Positions 1-63,007 of a stretch of DNA of 64,000 nucleotides are shown here, one piece after another; within the stretch, counting starts at the first letter, position 1; the number at the start of each line of letters is the position of its first letter. This DNA is from Sorex araneus. Taxonomy: Eukaryota; Chordata; Mammalia; Eulipotyphla; Soricidae. Below the pieces are notes generated by a model. That model worked only from the letters and a program-made list of their open reading frames with translations, was not told where the DNA came from and did not search any database. A program made the translations under genes and the position numbers. The stretch covers positions 139,425,211 through 139,489,210 of the forward strand of contig NC_073304.1 in the NCBI RefSeq assembly GCF_027595985.1. Direction: 5' to 3'.

Positions 1-1488
1 AAGAGGACTTCAGGAGCGTTCTCCAAGCCACCCCAGAGGCAGTTGGTCAGTTCTAGGAATGGTACCCAAGAGACAGAAGCAGCAGCCAGCCCTGCTCAGG
101 TGGGGAGCCCTGAGGAAGCAGACAAGCTATTAAAGACAATAGAAGTCTTAGGATTCGGAACAGTCCACTGTGGCGAGTGTGGACTGAGCTTCAGCAAGAT
201 GACCAACCTGCTTAGTCACCAGAGGATACACTCTGGGGAGAAGCCTTATGTGTGTGGGGTTTGTGAGAAGGGCTTTAGTCTAAAGAAGAGTCTGGCCAGG
301 CACCAGAAGGCCCACTCAGGGGAGAAGCCCATTGTGTGCAGGGAATGTGGGCGAGGGTTTAACCGTAAGTCAACACTCATCATACACGAAAGAACACACT
401 CTGGCGAAAAGCCATACATGTGCAGCGAGTGTGGGCGAGGCTTTAGTCAGAAGTCCAACCTCATCATCCACCAGAGAACGCACTCCGGAGAGAAGCCCTA
501 CGTGTGCCGGGAGTGTGGGAAAGGCTTCAGCCAGAAGTCGGCTGTCGTCAGGCACCAGAGGACACACTTGGAGGAGAAGACCATTGTGTGCACCGACTGT
601 GGTTTAGGCTTCAGTGACAGATCCAACCTTATCTCACACCAGAGGACACACTCTGGTGAGAAGCCTTATGCCTGCAAGGAGTGTGGACGATGCTTTAGGC
701 AGAGGACCACGCTTGTCAACCACCAACGGACACACTCAAAGGAGAAGCCTTACATGTGTGGCGTGTGTGGGCACAGCTTCAGCCAGAATTCCACCCTCAT
801 CTCACACAGGCGGACACACACTGGGGAGAAGCCTTATGTGTGTGAGGTGTGTGGGCGAGGCTTCAGTCTGAAGTCACACCTTAATAGACACCAGAACATA
901 CACTCAGGGGACAAGCCCATTGTGTGCCAGGACTGTGGGCGTGGCTTCAGCCAGCAGTCCAATCTCATCCGACACCAGAGGACACACTCAGGAGAGAAGC
1001 CCATGGTGTGTGAGGATTGTGGACGAGGCTTCAGCCAGAAGTCCAACCTCATTGCACATCAGAGAACACACTCAGGGGAGAAGCCATACGTTTGCCGAGA
1101 GTGTGGGCGAGGCTTCAGTCACCAGGCGGGTCTCATCAGGCACAGGAGGAAACACTCAAGGGAGAAGCCTTACATGTGCAGGCAGTGTGGCTTGGGCTTT
1201 AACAGTAAGTCGGCTTTAGTCACGCATAAACGGGTACACTCGGAAGAGAAGCCTTGTGTCTGCAGGGAATGTGGCGAAAGCTTTCTCCAAAAGTCACACC
1301 TCATCATACATCAGATGGCGCACCAGGAGGAGAAGCCTTACGTGTGCAAGACCTGTGGGCAGGGCTTTAGCCAGAAGTCTCACCTCAACAGACACAGGAA
1401 GATGAAATCTGGCCATCACAAACCTCAGCTCCAGCACCATCCCAAAGCCCCTTCAGGGCAAATGTTAGACCTCTTACCGCCTACTTGA
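1..1488 (+). CDS. ZNF133: ZNF133, last exon (5' end cut by the window), C2H2 zinc-finger array
   Basis: Open from base 1 in frame 1 to a TGA at 1486-1488 (495 codons); the exon begins left of the window, so no start codon is expected here. After a linker of about 55 residues come fifteen tandem C2H2 units joined by HSGEKP-type linkers. Fourteen fit C-x2-C-x12-H-x3-H. The fifteenth (about 1345-1420) has Lys in place of the last His. The linker (VSSRNG, EVLGFGTV) and finger 1 (CGECGLSFSKMTNLLSHQ) match my memory of human ZNF133 almost residue for residue. ZNF133 is a KRAB-containing nuclear DNA-binding repressor; the KRAB box is on upstream exons outside the window. Convergent DZANK1 to the right is its human neighbour. 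PRDM9 was considered because its fingers look similar, but the linker and synteny exclude it. No frameshift or stop is seen. Confidence 0.95.
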   Translation, partial: KRTSGAFSKPPQRQLVSSRNGTQETEAAASPAQVGSPEEADKLLKTIEVLGFGTVHCGECGLSFSKMTNLLSHQRIHSGEKPYVCGVCEKGFSLKKSLARHQKAHSGEKPIVCRECGRGFNRKSTLIIHERTHSGEKPYMCSECGRGFSQKSNLIIHQRTHSGEKPYVCRECGKGFSQKSAVVRHQRTHLEEKTIVCTDCGLGFSDRSNLISHQRTHSGEKPYACKECGRCFRQRTTLVNHQRTHSKEKPYMCGVCGHSFSQNSTLISHRRTHTGEKPYVCEVCGRGFSLKSHLNRHQNIHSGDKPIVCQDCGRGFSQQSNLIRHQRTHSGEKPMVCEDCGRGFSQKSNLIAHQRTHSGEKPYVCRECGRGFSHQAGLIRHRRKHSREKPYMCRQCGLGFNSKSALVTHKRVHSEEKPCVCRECGESFLQKSHLIIHQMAHQEEKPYVCKTCGQGFSQKSHLNRHRKMKSGHHKPQLQHHPKAPSGQMLDLLPPT

Positions 1489-4064: not shown

Positions 4065-6310
4065 ATGCCACCCGCATGGCAGAGCCTGGCAAGCTACCCA
4101 TGGCGTATTTGATATGCCAAAAAAGTAACAAAAATGGGCCTCATTCCCCTAATCCTGGAAGAGCCCCCAATATGGCAGCGTTGAGAAGGATGAACAAGGA
4201 GAGGCTGCTAAAATCCCAGGGCCGAAATAGGCTGCCAAAACGAAGAAAGACTAAAATGACTGTCTGCACTTTTAACACATATACACTGGCATTGGAAGCA
4301 TCCATCGAGGACCTGATGTTGCAAGCGCAGAAGACCAAGTACGACATCATTAGAATAACCAAGACGAGAAGGCATCCATCACATCACGCCATTTTCGACA
4401 CTGGAGAAGAACTGTTCCTTAGAACATGTGACAGTAGAGGTATCGGTGGTGTCGGTGTCCTCGTCAACATGAACTTGGCCATGAGCATTGATTCATTTAA
4501 ATGCCTAACAACCCAAATTGGACGCTTACATTTGAATAGATGTGGCTCATTGCCGCCAGTTTCTATCTTCAAACCTTCTACAAGGTCATTATCGGTAATT
4601 TTAACGCCAAAATAGGACCGAGAAGGTTGCCTGAAGAACTCCACACTGGGACCCATGGCCTAGAATAGAATGAACAGGGTGAGAGACTGTCTGAGTTCAT
4701 CATGTTGACCAAGACCATCCATGGTAACTCGAAGTTCCAGAAGGCTGAATCTAAAAGTTGGACATGGGAGTCTTCTGGTGGATAGTTCCACAACGAAATT
4801 GATCGCATCATATTCAATTGACAGTTTTGCCTGAACGATGTCACTGTTGTCCCCAAATTCCAAATGGGATCAGACCACCATCTCCTCCATACGAAATTCT
4901 ACTTCACAGAGAGGGGAGAAAGGGCTGCAAAGTTTTAGAAGAGAACTCCCAGAACGACCACCAACTGGGAGCTCTGTGGCACTATTGTAGTAATATGGGA
5001 AGATTCTGTTATTGACAACATAGACAAGGAATATGATCGACTGGTTCAGCACCTCCATGATTGTGTGAGGAACGCCAAGAGAGAAAACCACAAAAAGACG
5101 CCTGTCTTCGGAAACTCTCAAGCTCATTCACCAATGTGGTCTGGCGCGTGCCTCAGGTAATCACAAGCCAATGTAGGAGCTCACAAAGCTGTGCAGAGAA
5201 GCAATAAAGGAAGACCTCAAAGAGAGAAGAGCAGCCATGTTGGCTGATGCGGCAGAAGCCGGGAAAAGTATTCTCAATACCCACCTGTCCTTCGCCAACT
5301 ACAAGACCTAGATAACTGCCCTCCAACGTCCTGATAAATCTATCACATCTTCCAGAAGGGCAATGGAGAAGGTTATCCACAACTTCTACTCAGATCTCTT
5401 CAATAGCCATGTCCACCTGCCCACATACCAAATTCCGTAGGATGAATATGTTCCCAGTGTTCTCCATTTTGAAATCCGACATGTCATTTCATTGGTAAAG
5501 AAGCGTACAGCACCCAGTCCAGACAAGGTCAGACCCAAACACCTGAAGAATCTGCAGCCAGTACTCATCGATACACTGGCTCATCTCTTCACATGCTACC
5601 TATCTGAATGCAAGGTTCTGTCCCAATAGAAAACCAGCAGGACCATTCAATTGTACAAGAACGACATTGGCAATTATCACCCAATCTGTCTGTCGTCCGT
5701 CATCTACAAGTTGTTCACTCGAGTCATCCTGAATAGTATTGGCAGAACACTAGACGAAGGACAACCATGCAAGCAAGCCGGGTTCCAAAATGGATTCAGC
5801 ACGAGAGTCCATATCCACATGGTGACCAAGCTCACAGAGGTTTCACAAGAATTCAAGATGTCGCTGTCTAACGTTCACTGATTTAAAGAAGGTCATTGGT
5901 TCTGTTGAGATTGAAGCAGTCATGAAGCCCTAGCCAAACTGTGCATTCAAACTGTACATCAGGATCCTCCTTGAGTTGTATTACGGATTCACCACCAGGA
6001 TCTCACCATTCTACAAGGAAGTGATCATCGACGTAAAGAGAGGGGTTTGGCAGGGTGATACCATTTCACTGAAACTCTTCAATGTCACCCTCGAGAACAT
6101 CATGTGACGATTGGAATGGGAAGGAATGGGGGTGAAGATAGACGGTCTGCAACTACACCACCTCTGCTTCACTGATGACATCATTCTAATAACACCAAAC
6201 ATTAGCCAAGCAACACAAATACTGGCCGACTGTGACCGTGAGTGTGGAAAGGTCGGACTGCGGCTGAATCTCATGAAGACAATGTTCATGAGAAATGAGC
6301 TAGTTCCTCA
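4065..6310 (+). mobile_element. RTE-clade non-LTR retrotransposon, copy A (decayed, lacks its 3' end)
   Basis: Broken frames encode an RTE-type polyprotein. The endonuclease start is at about 4255 (MTVCTFNTYTLA), then SSRRAMEKVIHNFYSDL-like text near 5350. The reverse-transcriptase N-terminal part is at about 5650-5860 (DIGNYHPICLSSVIYKLFT, then IGRTLDEGQPCKQAGFQ). The catalytic-region frame at 6111-6310 includes a degraded active site reading FTDDIILITPN. Many stops and frameshifts separate these blocks, so the copy is dead. It shares the 5' leader (GGCAGAGCCTGGCAAGCTAC) with copy B. The element stops at about 6310, inside the RT domain, where L1 sequence begins. The whole RTE 3' domain is missing. 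Confidence 0.88.
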
Positions 6311-13542: not shown

Positions 13543-16500
13543 TGTTCCAAGGAACAATTCTTCTCCAGTGTCGAAAATGGCATGATGTGATTGATGTCTC
13601 CTCGTTTCGGTCAGACCAATGATGTACTTGATCTTCTGCGCTTGCACCATCAGGTCCTCGATGGATGCTTCTGATGCCAGTGTCAGTGCGTTGAAAGTAC
13701 AGACAATCATTTTAGTCTTTCTTCATTTTGGCAGTCTAGTTCATCCCCGAGATTTTTTCAGCCCTCTTTGCTCATCTTTCTTAACGCTGCCGTATTGGGG
13801 GCTCTTTCGGTGACAGGTGAATGAGGCCAAGTGTTTTTACTGTTGTTGGCATATCGAATACGCGACAGGTAGCTTGCTAGGCTCTGCCGTGCGGGTGAGA
13901 TACTCTCAGTAGCTTCCTGGCCTCTCCGAGAGGGATGGAGGCTTTTAGGGCAGCCTCCAATCGCCCTTAGAGGTGTTAACATGGTTCACACCAAATTTGA
14001 ACCCTATCAAATATGGTGTGGGAATAATAGGTATTAAGTGTTTTATGGTGTGTCCTGGAGGGTGGTGGTGGCTGGGTAGTGGATGTAGTGGGGGTTGGCC
14101 AGTGAGGTATTTATCTTGGGTAGAAGGGGCGTCTGGGTTGGACCCGTCCCTCAGATGCCGGAGATTGGAGGAGGCAGACAGAGGATCTTGTTTCCAGGTC
14201 TCATTGAACATAGAGCTAAGGTCGCAAAGTTCTGCTTATCTGGCTTTGTGGGGCTTCACTCGTGTGTGAGTTTCGGCCCAAGTGTCCGGAGAGCAACCTG
14301 GCTTTGCGGGGCTTCACTTGTGCGTGAGGTTCGGCCCAAGTGTCCAGAGAGCAACCTGGAGGGTGGCGGTTGCTGGGTAGTAGTAATTGTTCTTCGGAAC
14401 ATGCGACAACAAAGGCGTTGGTGGCATTGGTGTTCTTGTCAACACAAACTTGGCCATGAGCATTGGTTCATTTGAATGCCTAACAACCCAAATTGGACGA
14501 TTACACTTGAATAGATGTGGCTCACTGCCTGCAGTTTCTATCATTGTCTACGCGCCAACTTCCAACTATGATGAGGAAGAAATTGAGAGGTTCTACATGG
14601 AACTGGAGAAGTTCTATAAAGAAGACCACACCTTCTACAAGATCATTGTTGGTGATTTTAATGCCAAGATAGGTCCGAGAAGGTCGCCCGAAGAACTCCA
14701 CATTGGGACACATTGCCTAGAATGGAAGGATCAGGGTGAGAAACTGTCTGAATTCATCATGTCGACCAAGACCATCCATGGTAACTCACAGTTCCAGAAG
14801 GCCAAATCTAAATTCTGGACATGGGAGTCTCCCAGTGTACAGTTCCACAATGAAATTGACCACATCATATTCGATCGAAGGTTTTGCCTGACTGATGTCG
14901 CTGTTGTCCCAAAATTCCAAACGGGATCAGACCACCATCTCCTTCGTGCGAAATTCTACTTCACAGAGCGGAAAGAAAAGTCTGCAAAATTTAAGTTTAA
15001 GAAGACAACTCCCAGAATGACCACCAACTGGGAGCTCTTTGGCACTATTGCAGCAACGTGGGAAGATGCCATCCTTGACAACATCGACAAAGAATACGTT
15101 CGACTGGTTTAGCACCTCCATGTCTGTGCGAAGAATGCCGAGAGTGAGAAAGCCACAAACAGATGCCTGTCTTCGGAAACTCTCGAGCTCATTCATCAAT
15201 GTGGTTTGGCACAAGCCTCAGGCAACCACAAGCTAACGTCTGAGCTCACAAAGCTGTGCAGAGATGCAATAAAGGAAGACCTCAAAGAGAGAAGAGCAGC
15301 AGAAGCTGGGAAAAGTATTTGTAACGCTCGCCTGTCCTTCGCCAACTACAAGACCAAGATGACTGCCCTCCGACGTCCCAATGGATCTATCACATCCTCC
15401 AGAAAGGCAATAGAGAAAATTATTCATGACTTCTACTTGGATCTCTTTGACAGCCACATATGTCCACCTGCCCACATACCAAATTCCGCAAGATGGATAT
15501 GTCGTTCCCAACGTTCTCCCTTCTGAAATCTGACACACCATTTCGCTGGTAGAGAGCGAACAGCACCTGGTCCGGACAAAATCAGACCCGAACACCTGAA
15601 GAATCTGCTGCCAGTACTCATCAATACACTGGCCCGACTCTTCACCTGTCTGAATGCAAGATTCCGTCACAGTGGAAAACCAGTTGTTCTGTTGTACAAG
15701 AAGGGAGACATCCACGACATCGGCAACTATCGCCCAATCTGCCTGCTGTCTGTCGTCTACAAGTTGTTCACTCGTGTCATCCTGAATAGAATAGGCAGAA
15801 CACTAGACGAAGGACAACCATGCAAGCAAGCCGGGTTCCGAAGGGGATTCAGCATGATAGACCATATCCAAACACTGACAAAACTCACTGAAGTTTGGCG
15901 AGAGTTCAAGATGCCACTCTGTCTAACATTCATCGACTTAAAGAAGGCCTTCGATTCTGTTGAGACTGAGGCGGTCATCGAAGCCCTGGCCAAACAGGGT
16001 GTTCAAACTCAGTATATCAAAATCCTCCGAGAGCTGTATTGTGGATTCACCACTAGGATCTCACCATTCTACAAGGAAGTGATCATTGATGTAAAGAGAG
16101 GGGTGTGGCAGAATGATACCATTTCACCAAAACTCTTCAGTGCTGCCCTTGAGAACATCATGTGATGACTGAAATGGGAAGGAATGGGAGTGAAGATAGA
16201 CAGTCGGCAATTACACCACCTCTGCTTCACTGATGACATCGTTCTCATAACACCAAACATTAGCCAAGTGGCACAAATGCTGACCGACTTCGACCACGAG
16301 TGTGGAAAGGTCGGATTGCAGCTGAATCTCAACAAGACGATGTTCATGAAAAACTAACTGGTCCCTGAAGCTCCATTTGCTCTCAATGGAACAATCATCT
16401 CCGAATGCAGCAGCTATGTGTACCTGGGTCGAGAAATCAACATAAAGAGCGACTTGGTGCCAGAACTGCTCAGGAGGAAGAGAGCAGCGTGGAATGCATT

Positions 16501-17068
16501 CAGGAGCATCGAAGAGGTGGTTAAGAGAACGAAGAACCTCTGACTCCGGGCACATCCTTTCAATTCCACCGTTCTTCCTGCACTAACATATGCCTCAGAG
16601 ACCTGGGCCCTATTCAAACAGCATGAGAATGCTATTAGGGTATCCCAAAGAGGAATCGAAAGAGCTATGCTGGGAATATCATGTCTCACTCAGATGAGAG
16701 AAGGAATCTGGAGTTCTGACCTCTGTCGATGGTCAAAAATCAGGGATGCTGTCTCGTTTGCCAAGGCATCAAAATTCAGATGGAACAGTCATGCAATGCA
16801 ATTCAGAGACGACCGCTGGACTAGAGTTGTTACCGACTGGATTCCACGGGACGTCAGAAGACCTCATGGCTGCCCACCAACTAAATGGTCAGATTTCTTC
16901 GTCAAATCCCTGAATGAACGATTTGATATTTGAGGCTCTTCCTGTTCCTGGAGCGAGCAGATATCATTGGGCTGCACTAGTTCGCGACAGGGACAAATGG
17001 AGACGTTACTGGCGCCCGCTCAAGAAAATCAAAGATCAACAGGACTACAAGTGATACAAGTGATACAA
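13543..17068 (+). mobile_element. RTE-clade retrotransposon, copy B: near full length, 5' part inverted
   Basis: About 3.5 kb. 13543-14385 carries the element 5' region in reverse orientation: 5' UTR, leader, start of the endonuclease. 14386-17068 continues in forward orientation. Both arms contain about 20 bases of the same spot (AATTGTTCTTCGGAACATG and its diverged twin), so the breakpoint is a twin-priming inversion. The forward body encodes endonuclease motifs VGDFNAKIG (about 14647) and SDHHLL (14928). RT motifs follow: GNYRPICLLSVVYKLFT (15720), IDLKKAFDSVE (15930), a damaged motif B (WQND for RQGD, 16108) and FTDDIVLITPN (16230). A C-terminal domain ends near 17055. The 3' end is a TGATACAAG repeat, not poly-A, typical of RTE. 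An 11-bp target duplication lies within a SINE. Stops at 15110, 15526 and 16163 kill it. Confidence 0.93.
14245..14370 (-). repeat. Tandem monomers in the RTE 5' UTR
   Basis: Two adjacent units of about 60 bp inside the inverted RTE 5' end. The shared strings are GGCTTTGTGGGGCTTCACTC / GGCTTTGCGGGGCTTCACTT, then TTCGGCCCAAGTGTCC and AGAGAGCAACCTGG. A second, shorter duplication (GGAGGGTGG and TGGCTGGGTAGT near 14058, GGAGGGTGGCGGTTGCTGGG near 14360) flanks them. Tandem 5' UTR units often carry promoter function in LINEs; that role is only inferred here. Confidence 0.7.
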
Positions 17069-17223
17069 GGGGGGGCACAGCTGGCTCAGGGCTTACTCCT
17101 GGCTCTTCACTCAGGGATCACTCCTGGCAGAGCTTGGGAGAACCATCTGGGATATAAGGAATCAAATCCCTGTTGGCCTTGTGCAAGGCAAACACCCCAC
17201 TCCAGTACTATTGTTCCAGCCTC

Positions 17224-18430: not shown

Positions 18431-18734
18431 CTTAAAAATGTCTTTAGCTAATATATCATGGAGGGTTCTGCCTACATATTCCTCCATGTACCTTATGGAT
18501 TCAGGTCTGATACTGAGATCTTTAATCTATTTGGATCTGACTTTGTGTTTGGTGTTACACAGAGGTCTGGGTTCATTTTTTTGCAGATAGCTTTCCAGTT
18601 TTCCCAGCACCACTTTTTTAAGAGGCTTTCCTTGCTCCATTTCACATTTCTTCCTCCTTTATCAAACATAAAGTGTTTGATATACTTGAGAGTCTGTGTC
18701 AGAATATTCAACTCTGTTCCATTGGTCTGAGGGT
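18431..18734 (-). mobile_element. L1 ORF2 internal fragment
   Basis: A 72-codon minus-strand frame reads FDKGGRNVKWSKESLLKKW and CWENWKAICKKMNPDL, matching ORF2 of the other L1s here. Both ends are truncated within ORF2. The right edge abuts the composite SINE at 18735. Confidence 0.85.
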
Positions 18735-18977
18735 CTGTCGACAGAACAGCGGGTAGGGCATTTGCCTTGCATGTGGCCGACCTGGGTTCGATTCCTCCAT
18801 CCCTCTCAGAGAGCCCGGCAAGTTACCGAGAGTTGCCCACCCACACAGCAGAGCCTGGCAAGCTACTTGTGACATATTTGAAATGCCAAAAACAATAAGA
18901 ACAAGTCTTACAATGGAGACATCACAGGTGCCCGCTCAAGCGAATCAAACAACGGGATGACAGTGCTACATTACTAC
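18735..18977 (+). mobile_element. Composite SINE: tRNA-like head joined to RTE 5' and 3' ends
   Basis: Three modules can be read. (1) 18737-18797 is the shrew SINE tRNA-like head: ACAGCGGGTAGGGCATTTGC, then GCCGACCTGGGTTCGATTCC with box B. (2) 18798-18900 is the RTE 5' leader: CATCCCTCTCAGAGAGCCCG, CAGCAGAGCCTGGCAAGCTA and GACATATTTGAAATGCCAAA, as in RTE copies A and B. (3) 18912-18977 is the RTE 3' end: ATGGAGACATCACAGGTGCC, CGCTCAAGCGAATCAAACAA and a short tail without poly-A. No coding region is present. It is inferred to be a non-autonomous element mobilised by RTE. Confidence 0.75.
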
Positions 18978-18982
18978 CATGT

Positions 18983-20980
18983 GTTTTTATTATTATTATT
19001 ATTTAAATTTTATTGAATCACCGTGAGATAGTTACAAGCTTTCATGTTTGGGTTACAATCATACAATGATCAAACACCCCTCCCTCCACCAGTGCACATT
19101 CCCCACCACCAATATCCCTGGTGTACCCCCCCTTTCCCACCCTCCCCCTGCCTCTTTTGTGGAGTATAGAATAACATGACATGAGGCTGACACCCAAGGA
19201 CAGTAGATACAAGGGCCAGGAGGATTTCCCCATAGCTGGAAGACTGCTTCATGAGCGGAGGAGAAAAGGCAGATGGAATAGAGAAGGGATCACTAAGAAA
19301 ATGATGGCTGGAGGAATCAGTCAGGATGGAAAATGCATGCCAAAAGTAGATAATGGACCAAACATGATGACCTTCCAGTGTCTGTGTTGCAAGCCATGAT
19401 GCCCAAAAGTAGAGAGAGAGTATGGGGAATATTGTCTGCCATGGAGGCGGTTTTAATTACTACTGCTTTGTAGTACAGCTTGAAGTTGGGGAAAGTGATG
19501 GCACCCATCTTCTTTCCCCCAAGGATTGCTTTAGCTATTTGTGGGGGTTTAATGCTCCATATGAATATCAGGAGTATTTTGTCAATTTCTTTGAAAAATG
19601 TCATGGGTATCCTCAATAGAGACCACATTGAATCTATATAATGCTTTGGGGGAAATTAACATTGCCATTTTGACAATGTTAATCCTCTTGATCCATAAAC
19701 AGGGGATGTCTCTCTATTTGCTAGTGTCCTCTTTTATTTCTTGAAGTACTGTTTTGTAGTTTTCATTGTATAGGTCCTTCACCTCTTTAGTTAAGCTGAT
19801 TCCAAGGTATCTGATTTTCCGAGGCACTATTGTGAACTTTTTAAAAATATCTCTTCTCTTTTGTTATTTGTATATAGGAAAGCCATATACTTTTAGGAAT
19901 TGATTTTGTAACTTGCCACTTTACTATACAGACCTATTGTTTCTAGGAGCTTTTCTGTAAAGTCTTTAGAATTTTCTAAGTATAATGTCATGTCATCTGC
20001 AGTGATAGCTTGACTTCTCCGTTTCCTATCTGGATGCTCTTGATATCTTTTTCTTGCCTAACTGCTATGGCAAGTACTTCCAGTACTATACTGAATAGAA
20101 GTGGTGAGAGTGTGCAACCTTGTCCCTAATCTTAGAGGGAAGGCTCTGAGTTTTTCCCCACTGAGAATATGCTTGCTATAGGTTTGTGGTAGATGGTTTT
20201 GACTATAGTGAGGAATGTTCCTTTGACTTCCATTTTGTAGAGGGTTTTTATCACAAATGGCTTCTGGGTCTTGTCAAATGTCTTCTCTGCATATATTGAT
20301 ATGATCATATGTTTTTTATCTTTCCTTTCATTTATATGGTATATTATGTTGATTTACTTGTACTCACAAGTAAATCATCCTTGAACGATCCTTGCATCCC
20401 CAGGATGAATCCTACTTAGTCGTGGTGCATGATCGGTTTGATGATTCATTGGATTCTATTTGCTAGTATTTTGTTGAGGATCTTTACGTCTGCGTTCATC
20501 AGGAATATTGGCCTGTAATTCTCTCTTTTTTGTTGTGTCTCTGTCTGCTTTTGGTATTAAAGTGATATTTCCCTCACAGAAACTGTTTGGAAGTGTTTCA
20601 ATTTCCTGGAAAAGCTTGAACAGTATTGGGAGTAGGTCCTGTTTAAAGGTTTGAAAGAATTCACTAGTGAATCCATCTGAGCCAAGGGTTTTGTTTTGAA
20701 GGAGACTTTTGATTATTATTTCAATTTCCTCGATAGTGATAGGTCTGTTAAGGTATTCCTAGTCTTCTTGGGTCAGCTTTGGGAGACTATAGGAGTCCAG
20801 GAATTCATCCATTTCTTTGAGGTTCTCTTGTGTCGTGGCATAAAGATTCTCAAAGTAACCTCTGATTATCCTTTTAATTTCTGTGGCTTCTGTTGGGATG
20901 TTCCCCTTTTCATTTCTGATTCTATTTACTGGGGGTCTCTCTTTGAAATCACACATTTCTGAAAATGTTTTATTCAAAGC
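18983..20980 (-). mobile_element. L1, minus strand, 5'-truncated with internal deletion
   Basis: The poly-A side is at 18983 (TTATTGAATCACCGTGAGAT). The 3' UTR runs to about 19438, then jumps directly into ORF2 ([16 protein letters not shown]). About 1.3 kb of the ORF2 C-terminus is missing compared with the copy at 28.6-34.9 kb. ORF2 then runs with frameshifts to 20980 ([16 protein letters not shown] and [14 protein letters not shown]). RT-domain text can be read in broken frames between. Confidence 0.88.
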
Positions 20981-21189: not shown

Positions 21190-21356
21190 GGGGCTAAAGC
21201 GATAATACAGTGGGTAGGGTGTTCGCCTTGCACATGGCCGACCTGGGTTCGATCCTCGGCATCCCATATGGTCCCTCAAGTACCACCAGGAGTAATTCCT
21301 GAGTGCAAAGCCAGAAGTAACCCCTTATCATCACTGGGTGTGACCCCCCAAAAAAT
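21190..21356 (+). mobile_element. Shrew tRNA-derived SINE
   Basis: GGGGCTAAAGCGATAATACA, GCCGACCTGGGTTCGATCCT, CCACCAGGAGTAATTCCTGA and GTGACCCCCCAAAAAAT. Moderately diverged, complete in length. Confidence 0.9.
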
Positions 21357-21439
21357 ATTTTTTAAAAAATAAAGGATGAAAATATATGACTTATCTGTAC
21401 TTCTATTAGATGGTAACTATATATGTATTCATACATCAA

Positions 21440-21660
21440 TTATATGGCAGAGTCTCTTGCCCCCGTGCCTGGCTGTTTTTCACTGGGGACCCTTGGAGGC
21501 GGTGGGTTGAGTCTCCCGCTCTGCCCCGAGCAGAGCCCTGGCAGCTGAAGACCTCCGGAACTCAGCCACAGCCATGCTCAAGGCCACTCTCCACATGCTT
21601 GGACAAGCCTCACACATGAAGGAACCGGCAGAGGAATCCAGGTGTGCTGAGATCTCCAAG
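21440..21660 (+). repeat. L1 5' UTR-like segment
   Basis: CCACAGCCATGCTCAAGGCC, CCACATGCTTGGACAAGCCT and nearby strings pair with 28200-28280 (CCACCGCCATACTCAAGGCT, CCCACACGCTCGGGCCAAGC). It is therefore a repeat. The GC content and adjacent L1 context suggest a 5' UTR, but this is not certain. Confidence 0.45.
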
Positions 21661-21803
21661 CCTGCTCAGATCGGGACTGGGCCTCTTCTGCCCAGATCCA
21701 TTTTCTAGTAGCTAGGCAGTCACATCCACAAATTTCCCCTGGCACCATGTAATCCCATCAATGGCCAACATCCAGAGACTATAAAACCAAGCTTCACAGC
21801 TGC

Positions 21804-22096
21804 GTGACATCTTATGGCCTAGTTCTCCTTCTCAGAGAACCTGGCAAGCTACAGAGAGTTTCCTGCCCACACAGGAGAGCCTGGCAAGCTGCCCATGGTG
21901 TATTCATATGCCAAATACTGTAACAATGATGGGTCTCATTCTCCTGACCCTGAAAGACCCTCTAATGTGGCACCATTGGGAAGGACAAGTAAAGAGAGGC
22001 TGCTAAAATCTCAGGGCTAGGATGAATGGAGAGGTTACTGGGCCCGCTCAAGCAAATTGATGATGAATGGATGATAAAGATAGTGATAGTGACATC
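21804..22096 (+). mobile_element. RTE-derived non-autonomous element (5' leader joined to 3' end)
   Basis: Body 21812-22088 with a possible 8-bp duplication GTGACATC at 21804-21811 and 22089-22096. It contains the RTE 5' leader in longer form than at 18735: GAGAGCCTGGCAAGCTGCCC, CATATGCCAAATACTGTAAC and AGAGAGGCTGCTAAAATCTC. It then switches directly to the RTE 3' end (GGAGAGGTTACTGGGCCCGC, TCAAGCAAATTGATGATGAA) with a GATAGTGATAGTGA tail. All of the roughly 2.6-kb RTE coding region is absent. A remnant of the tRNA-like box B may be present at the 5' edge (CTAGTTCTCCTT). Confidence 0.75.

Positions 22097-22660: not shown

Positions 22661-63007
<40,347 letters not shown>

What the first reader, a model, noticed from the sequence alone, without database searches (positions are those of the whole stretch)
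18735..18977. Composite SINE made of a tRNA-like SINE head, an RTE 5' leader and an RTE 3' end
Three modules seen elsewhere in this window are joined in about 240 bases without coding sequence. The head has box B of the shrew SINE, the middle matches the leader of RTE copies A and B, and the end matches the last 60 bases of copy B. A tRNA promoter plus an RTE 3' end is the design expected of a parasite of RTE reverse transcriptase, as known for BovB-dependent SINEs. I do not recall it described for shrews.
Basis: partly seen in the sequence, partly recalled or inferred. Interest (0 to 1): 0.75.

Follow-up and report, generated by a model that had tools for sequence, protein, structure and literature searches.

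The report
Shrew SINE parasitising an RTE retrotransposon
This is one copy of a very large family of short jumping genes in a genome that looks like a shrew's, built from the front of an older short element and the two ends of a longer "RTE" element whose copying machinery it probably borrows; it is real and follows a known building plan.

Summary
Window 18737-18971 is a 5'-shortened copy of a ~245-bp SINE: a 65-bp head with Pol III boxes A and B, ~115 bp of an RTE 5' UTR, ~65 bp of RTE 3' end, and 8-bp tail repeats. It is a family: 8 copies with all modules in 6 of 20 random 5-kb pieces (roughly 200,000 genome-wide, wide error), and 51,730 exact copies of the SINE-specific RTE5'/RTE3' junction, reversed-pattern control 0. 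The head is that of the abundant A-tailed (Sor-type) SINE: 61 of 65 bases. In the random sample none of 9 other RTE leaders carries it. Target duplications separate the two families that share this head: 30 of 36 Sor duplications begin AA/AG, 1 of 22 of the composite's. Most likely it is transcribed by Pol III and inserted in trans by the resident RTE. Head plus 5' and 3' pieces of the partner is the published "bipartite" plan of AviRTE SINEs, so this is a new member of a known kind. No printed description appeared in ten full-text search listings; Repbase and Dfam could not be checked, and so large a family is probably there. The partner is probably RTE1_Sar, reported as horizontally transferred between nematodes and the common shrew.

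The parts
18737..18795 (+). Head shared with the Sor-type SINE; box B GGTTCGATTCC intact at 18785-18795; degraded box A at 18742-18752
   Evidence: Profile match; family majority 61 of 65 identical to the majority of 19 window Sor-type copies; box coordinates read
18796..18910 (+). Internal piece of the RTE 5' UTR
   Evidence: Family majority 91.9% identical over 111 columns to the majority of 14 RTE copies of subfamily A; those leaders continue upstream of the junction
18911..18959 (+). RTE 3' end (end of ORF plus 3' UTR)
   Evidence: Family majority 84-89% to four sets of RTE or RTE-derived 3' ends; window RTE 16996-17058
18960..18971 (+). Tail, about one unit of the 8-bp repeat (CAGTGCTA in most aligned copies)
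   Evidence: Alignment of 40 copies; RTE tails of related type
18601..18738 (-). Host L1 sequence before the insertion; L1 resumes at 19447
   Evidence: L1 name by recall
18980..19446 (-). Repeat read as a second L1 3' end with A-rich tail (T-rich on +), next to the SINE; not part of it
   Evidence: 12 further matches in the window; lies between the two halves of the host L1
13530..13941 (-). RTE copy, subfamily A leader without the head (the RTE match extends upstream of this stretch)
14387..17075 (+). RTE copy with endonuclease and reverse transcriptase remnants and 3' end
   Evidence: Pfam Exo_endo_phos 1.5e-6 and RVT_1 1.2e-16 in two of three pieces scanned, none in the third; 3' end
4065..4615 (+). 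RTE copy, subfamily B leader and start of ORF
21780..22085 (+). Internally deleted mini-RTE (5' UTR joined to RTE 3' end, no tRNA-type head); extends further upstream

Best explanation
A Pol III-type SINE made by fusing the head of the Sor-type SINE to an internally deleted RTE (piece of 5' UTR plus 3' end). The head gives the transcript. The RTE 3' end and tail are recognised by the RTE reverse transcriptase, which inserts it by target-primed reverse transcription at sites unlike those of the L1-type SINE. Shown: the architecture, the family and its abundance, the shared head, its absence from the RTE leaders inspected, and target duplications unlike those of Sor. Inferred: Pol III transcription, trans-mobilisation by this RTE, and origin by template switching.
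For: Family of constant structure. 51,730 exact second-junction and 4,732 exact first-junction matches, reversed controls 0. Head = Sor type. Leader = RTE subfamily A, 3' end = RTE. In the random sample 0 of 9 RTE leaders carry the head, and 13 of 13 weak head-plus-body matches are Sor copies. Duplications in 22 of 53 copies against 7 of 262 shuffled pairings. AA/AG start in 1 of 22 against 30 of 36 for Sor, Fisher p 1.6e-9. Partner encodes endonuclease and RT. Same plan published for AviRTE SINEs (PMC4844689, passages).
Against: 31 of 53 copies gave no duplication under my criteria, and the window copy has none. No expression or mobilisation data. Consensus folding gave no pairs for the leader core (82 rows) and one weak 4-bp stem for the 3' end (43 rows). 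The start of a duplication can be blurred by overlap with the tail, so the AA/AG contrast is somewhat inflated; no RTE target-site control was run. The 14 subfamily A and 13 mini-C copies that lack the head were fetched with queries reaching upstream of the junction, which favours head-less copies. The 39 fetched best matches are biased towards the window copy.
Confidence: 0.87

Rival explanations
1. Internally deleted RTE whose own 5' UTR carried the tRNA-like promoter; no SINE capture.
For: Other internally deleted RTEs exist, and RTE 5' UTRs differ between subfamilies.
Against: 0 of 9 RTE leaders in the random sample and 0 of 3 in the window have the head; none in 14 subfamily A, 15 subfamily B and 13 mini-C copies, a set partly biased by the queries; the subfamily A 5' UTR runs on upstream of the junction.
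Confidence: 0.07
2. Mobilised by L1 like Sor; the RTE parts are passengers.
For: Same head as Sor; similar non-CpG divergence, 0.106 for 8 random copies against 0.100 for 58 Sor copies.
Against: No A-tail; target duplications start differently.
Confidence: 0.04
3. Chance nested insertion of separate repeats, at this locus only.
For: The copy does sit inside an L1 with another repeat beside it.
Against: Many copies with the same junctions.
Confidence: 0.005
4. The RTE took its leader from the SINE, not the reverse.
For: RTE 5' UTRs are modular.
Against: A core of the leader is present in the three RTE-derived groups compared, under different upstream sequences, and the SINE's junction lies inside the longer subfamily A 5' UTR.
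Confidence: 0.05

Closest known systems
AviRTE-mobilised SINEs of birds (ManaSINE1, GymnSINE and others; PMC4844689, passages)
   Same: Promoter-bearing head plus bipartite tail from part of the partner 5' UTR and the full 3' UTR; partner reported as horizontally transferred between birds and nematodes
   Different: Other RTE family, other host; heads from tRNA-Glu, 5S or 28S rRNA or GC-rich sequence instead of a resident SINE
Ped-2 of the springhare (row of Table 1 of PMC3747384)
   Same: Head from an existing tRNA SINE (ID) and a BovB partner
   Different: BovB partner and rodent host. That BovB SINEs also contain 5' and 3' BovB pieces is recalled from Gogolevsky 2008, which I did not read
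Bov-tA of ruminants
   Same: tRNA head and BovB partner (Table 1 of PMC3747384), hundreds of thousands of copies (PMC8620236, passages: 279,199 used in cattle, 381,457 in giraffe)
   Different: tRNA-Glu head, BovB partner
Sor SINE of shrews (named in PMC11240701, passages; sequence not compared)
   Same: Same 65-bp head in the same genome
   Different: Own body, A-rich tail, duplications starting with A-runs; no RTE part
RTE derivatives without a small-RNA head in Table 1 of PMC3747384 (RTESINE1, MAR4, RTE1-N1_LA, Bov-A2)
   Same: Listed with an RTE or BovB 5' end as promoter and an RTE tail, like the mini-RTEs seen here
   Different: No tRNA-type head

Membership tests
RTE-dependent SINE with bipartite tail | Pol III promoter head | tested here: met
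   Family majority carries TAGCACAGCGG and GGTTCGATTCC; of 40 aligned copies 34 have box B within 1 mismatch (13 exact) and 18 fit the box A pattern. Motif definitions recalled; transcription not tested
RTE-dependent SINE with bipartite tail | Piece of the partner's 5' region | tested here: met
   91.9% over 111 columns to RTE subfamily A
RTE-dependent SINE with bipartite tail | Partner's 3' end and short tail repeats, no poly-A | tested here: met
   84-89% over 60-65 columns; tail units
RTE-dependent SINE with bipartite tail | Dispersed family with common ends | tested here: met
RTE-dependent SINE with bipartite tail | RTE-type target sites (T-rich stretch, TA) | tested here: inconclusive
   22 duplications: TA or AT start in 13; T fraction 0.23-0.73 by position upstream (mean about 0.50) against 0.33 background; unlike Sor, but few sites and no RTE control
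RTE-dependent SINE with bipartite tail | Mobilised in trans by the RTE protein | not testable with these tools
   Needs a cell assay
BovB-dependent SINE in the strict sense | Partner is BovB | not tested
   No BovB reference was compared; the shrew RTE in print is RTE1_Sar (PMC6542046)
Partner is RTE1_Sar | Sequence identity to the Repbase entry | not testable with these tools
   Repbase not held; inferred because RTE1_Sar is the abundant shrew RTE of PMC6542046, and the species of the window is itself inferred
Sor SINE subfamily | Sor body and A-rich tail | tested here: not met
   Similarity to Sor is strong only in the first 65 bases; different 3' end and tail

The most novel reading that the evidence does not exclude
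The piece of RTE 5' UTR is a required cis-acting RNA signal, not a relic. In this genome RTE subfamilies with unrelated upstream sequences, head-less mini-RTEs and the Sor-headed SINE keep the same core of about 70 bases. With one head shared by an L1-type and an RTE-type SINE of similar age in one genome, one could test what each partner reads, and this would be a mammalian SINE family born on a LINE acquired from nematodes.
Probability: 0.35. Interest if true: 0.72.

Novelty: new member of a known kind. Interest (0 to 1): 0.5.

Why it matters
It extends the bipartite plan (head + partner 5' piece + partner 3' end), in print for AviRTE SINEs, to another RTE and probably to shrews, so the 5' piece looks like a rule that needs explaining. 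Two SINE families with the same head and different 3' ends show different target-site starts in one genome, a natural contrast of L1-type and RTE-type mobilisation. If the partner is RTE1_Sar, a horizontally acquired element supported something like 200,000 parasite insertions.

Tried and rejected
Rejected: single nested accident; head as part of the RTE (0 of 9 random leaders; none); a known Rfam RNA in the element (0 matches up to E 1; in one RTE copy only two matches far below their gathering scores); intact tRNA fold in the majority sequence (ARAGORN found nothing). Consensus RNA structure: alifold gave no pairs for 82 rows of the leader core, although single folds of three of four family majorities (RTE B, mini-C, SINE; not RTE A, nor the window copy) show a short hairpin there; at the 3' end only a 4-bp stem, paired in 34-42 of 43 rows. 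The first TSD test (16 of 40 scores >= 9 against 5.7% of 192 shuffled pairings) was replaced by the stricter. Divergence of the 40 aligned copies (0.094) is biased; the 8 random copies give 0.142-0.145. The exact count of the subfamily A junction of the RTE (205) is not a copy number; nor are the SINE junction counts, since of the 8 random copies only 1 has the second junction exact and none the first. Not possible with the tools: other shrews, moles, nematode genomes, Repbase, Dfam.

Full report
OBSERVATION. The stretch was compared with the rest of the window. Bases 18739-18795 match the 5' part of many A-tailed SINE copies at 77-92%; the middle matches 13941-13832 (-), 21826-21890 (+) and 4068-4123 (+); the end matches 16996-17058 (+). 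These stretches belong to copies of an RTE-like LINE: of three translated pieces of 14387-16933, one matches the Pfam endonuclease Exo_endo_phos (1.5e-6), one the reverse transcriptase RVT_1 (1.2e-16), the last nothing.

SURROUNDINGS. The copy sits in an L1: 18601-18738 matches three other copies in the window, and these continue at 19447. The gap holds the composite and a repeat (18980-19446) that I read as an L1 3' end with its tail. No target duplication of the composite was found at this locus. About 17 L1 bases are missing at the break (my reading), so either a small target deletion occurred or the duplication decayed.

FAMILY. The assembly that holds the window (unnamed, 2.41 Gb, 65 contigs) gave 5,292 first-look candidates; the 40 scored are the copy itself and 39 others at 83-88%, each covering at least 206 of 243 bases. 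I fetched all 39 and aligned them with the window copy. Most share a 5' start (GGACTGGAGCGATAGCACAGCGGGTAGGGC), box B, two internal junctions and a tail of 8-base repeats. For an unbiased count I drew 40 places at random over 11 contigs (96.9% of the assembly) and could fetch 5 kb at the first 20 of them. A profile of the 40 copies found 8 matches spanning all modules (one cut by the end of its piece) in 100,000 bases, of which 6,130 are N; they lie in 6 of the 20 pieces, three in one piece. By my arithmetic this is about 205,000 copies, Poisson 95% range about 90,000-400,000, somewhat too narrow because of the clustering; the window itself has 1 in 64 kb. Whole-genome exact counts: first junction (22 bases) 4,732, second junction (21 bases) 51,730, reversed controls 0. 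Of 19 usable places that I picked from the first 100 listed for the second junction (all on contig C1), 17 reach the head, one of them only from position 44, and 2 are 5'-shortened.

MODULE ORIGINS. Head: 61 of 65 bases equal to the majority of 19 Sor-type copies of the window; the 4 differences are transitions, 3 of them at CpG (counted by eye). The name Sor is by recall; PMC11240701 (passages) says that Sor is a SINE of the shrew genome, but its sequence was not compared. Leader: 91.9% over 111 columns to the majority of 14 subfamily A RTE copies, whose 5' UTR continues upstream of the junction, in some copies by about 360-410 bases, without the head. Fifteen subfamily B copies share a 71-base core (88.7%) under different upstream sequences. 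Mini-RTEs (12 fetched copies plus the window's) share 103 columns at 87.4% under yet another 5' sequence and lack the ORF. None of these 14 + 15 + 13 has the Sor head at the junction, but the queries for the A and mini-C sets reached upstream of the junction and so favour head-less copies. The unbiased test is the random sample: besides the 8 composites it has 9 RTE leaders, none with the head, and 13 weak head-plus-body matches, all 13 of which are Sor copies. 3' end: 84-89% to RTE subfamily A (8 rows), a B-like RTE group (3), mini-C (13) and a second mini type (3). The SINE tail (CAGTGCTA or CAGTGATA) is closest to the (ACAGTGAT) tails of the B-like RTE group and the second mini type.

INTEGRATION SIGNATURE. 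With flanks available for 53 distinct full copies, 22 have a target duplication of 8 or more bases at the right place, against 7 of 262 shuffled left/right pairings; mean length 11. The T fraction in the 14 bases before it is 0.23-0.73 by position (mean about 0.50, background 0.33), and 13 of 22 duplications start with TA or AT. As a contrast, 36 of 49 Sor copies gave duplications, 30 of them starting AA or AG; of the composite's 22, one does (Fisher p 1.6e-9, counts taken by eye from the lists). [quoted passage not shown] So two SINEs with the same head behave differently, as expected if the 3' end chooses the machinery.

AGE. Non-CpG K2P to the majority: 0.106 for the 8 random composites, 0.100 for 58 Sor copies (26 of the window, 32 random). 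The two families look about equally old. The window copy is 0.087-0.094 at all sites. No calendar age is claimed.

MECHANISM. Shown: a composite family with constant junctions and target sites unlike those of the A-tailed SINE. Inferred: Pol III transcription from the Sor head; recognition of the RTE 3' end; trans insertion by the RTE protein; origin by template switching from a deleted RTE onto Sor RNA (2-base overlap at the first junction, my reading of the alignments). A role for the leader core is suggested by its presence in every RTE-derived group compared, but consensus folding gave no support, and common descent alone could explain it.

WHAT IS KNOWN. PMC4844689 (passages): all AviRTE SINEs have a bipartite tail from the 5' and 3' UTRs and different heads. 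PMC3747384 (passages including the mammal rows of Table 1): mammalian SINEs with RTE-type partners include Bov-tA, Ped-1, Ped-2, Afro SINEs and SINE2-1_EC; there is no shrew entry in the rows shown. PMC8620236 (passages): 279,199 Bov-tA copies used for cattle. PMC6542046 (two of six parts of the text plus passages): RTE1_Sar of Sorex araneus is shared with nine nematode species and was probably horizontally transferred; the direction was not confirmed by their age analysis; its main text has no hit for SINE, UTR or tRNA. PMC3183009 (passage) lists shrew LTR families named _Sar, a style I know from Repbase, so a Repbase entry for this SINE is likely. Kojima 2018 on LINE-derived SINE middle bodies (title seen in a reference list) is not held and could mention it. 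No printed description of this family turned up in the listings of the ten searches, not all of which were aimed at shrews; this covers only the open library.

VERDICT. A real, abundant SINE of the RTE-dependent type; new member of a known kind. The species is inferred to be a shrew (Sor-type SINE, RTE literature); the tools gave no name.

Noticed in passing
window 21281-22090 (+); L085-L096: Head-less internally deleted RTE family (mini-RTE C) with a long 5' UTR containing GACTATAAAACC in most of 13 aligned copies, joined to the RTE 3' end with (AGTGAT)n tails; the 39 other scored genome matches are 87-91% identical.
   Followed up: partly
L102:2891-3107, L114:2059-2307 (-), L116:4212-4466; L112:1403-1762: Further internally deleted RTE types with other break points, so deletion derivatives seem to have arisen repeatedly.
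   Followed up: partly
L052-L065, L068-L082, L085-L096: RTE subfamilies and derivatives carry different sequences upstream of a common leader core; subfamily B alone shows at least two upstream types.
   Followed up: partly
L107:1974-2483 (-): Two composite SINEs inserted about 20 bases apart, apparently one at the target of the other.
   Followed up: no
window 284-1219 (+): Long open frames with a repeated pattern that looks like a zinc-finger array read in another frame; not tested.
   Followed up: no
window 27086-27545: Long simple repeat that leaves open frames on both strands.
   Followed up: no
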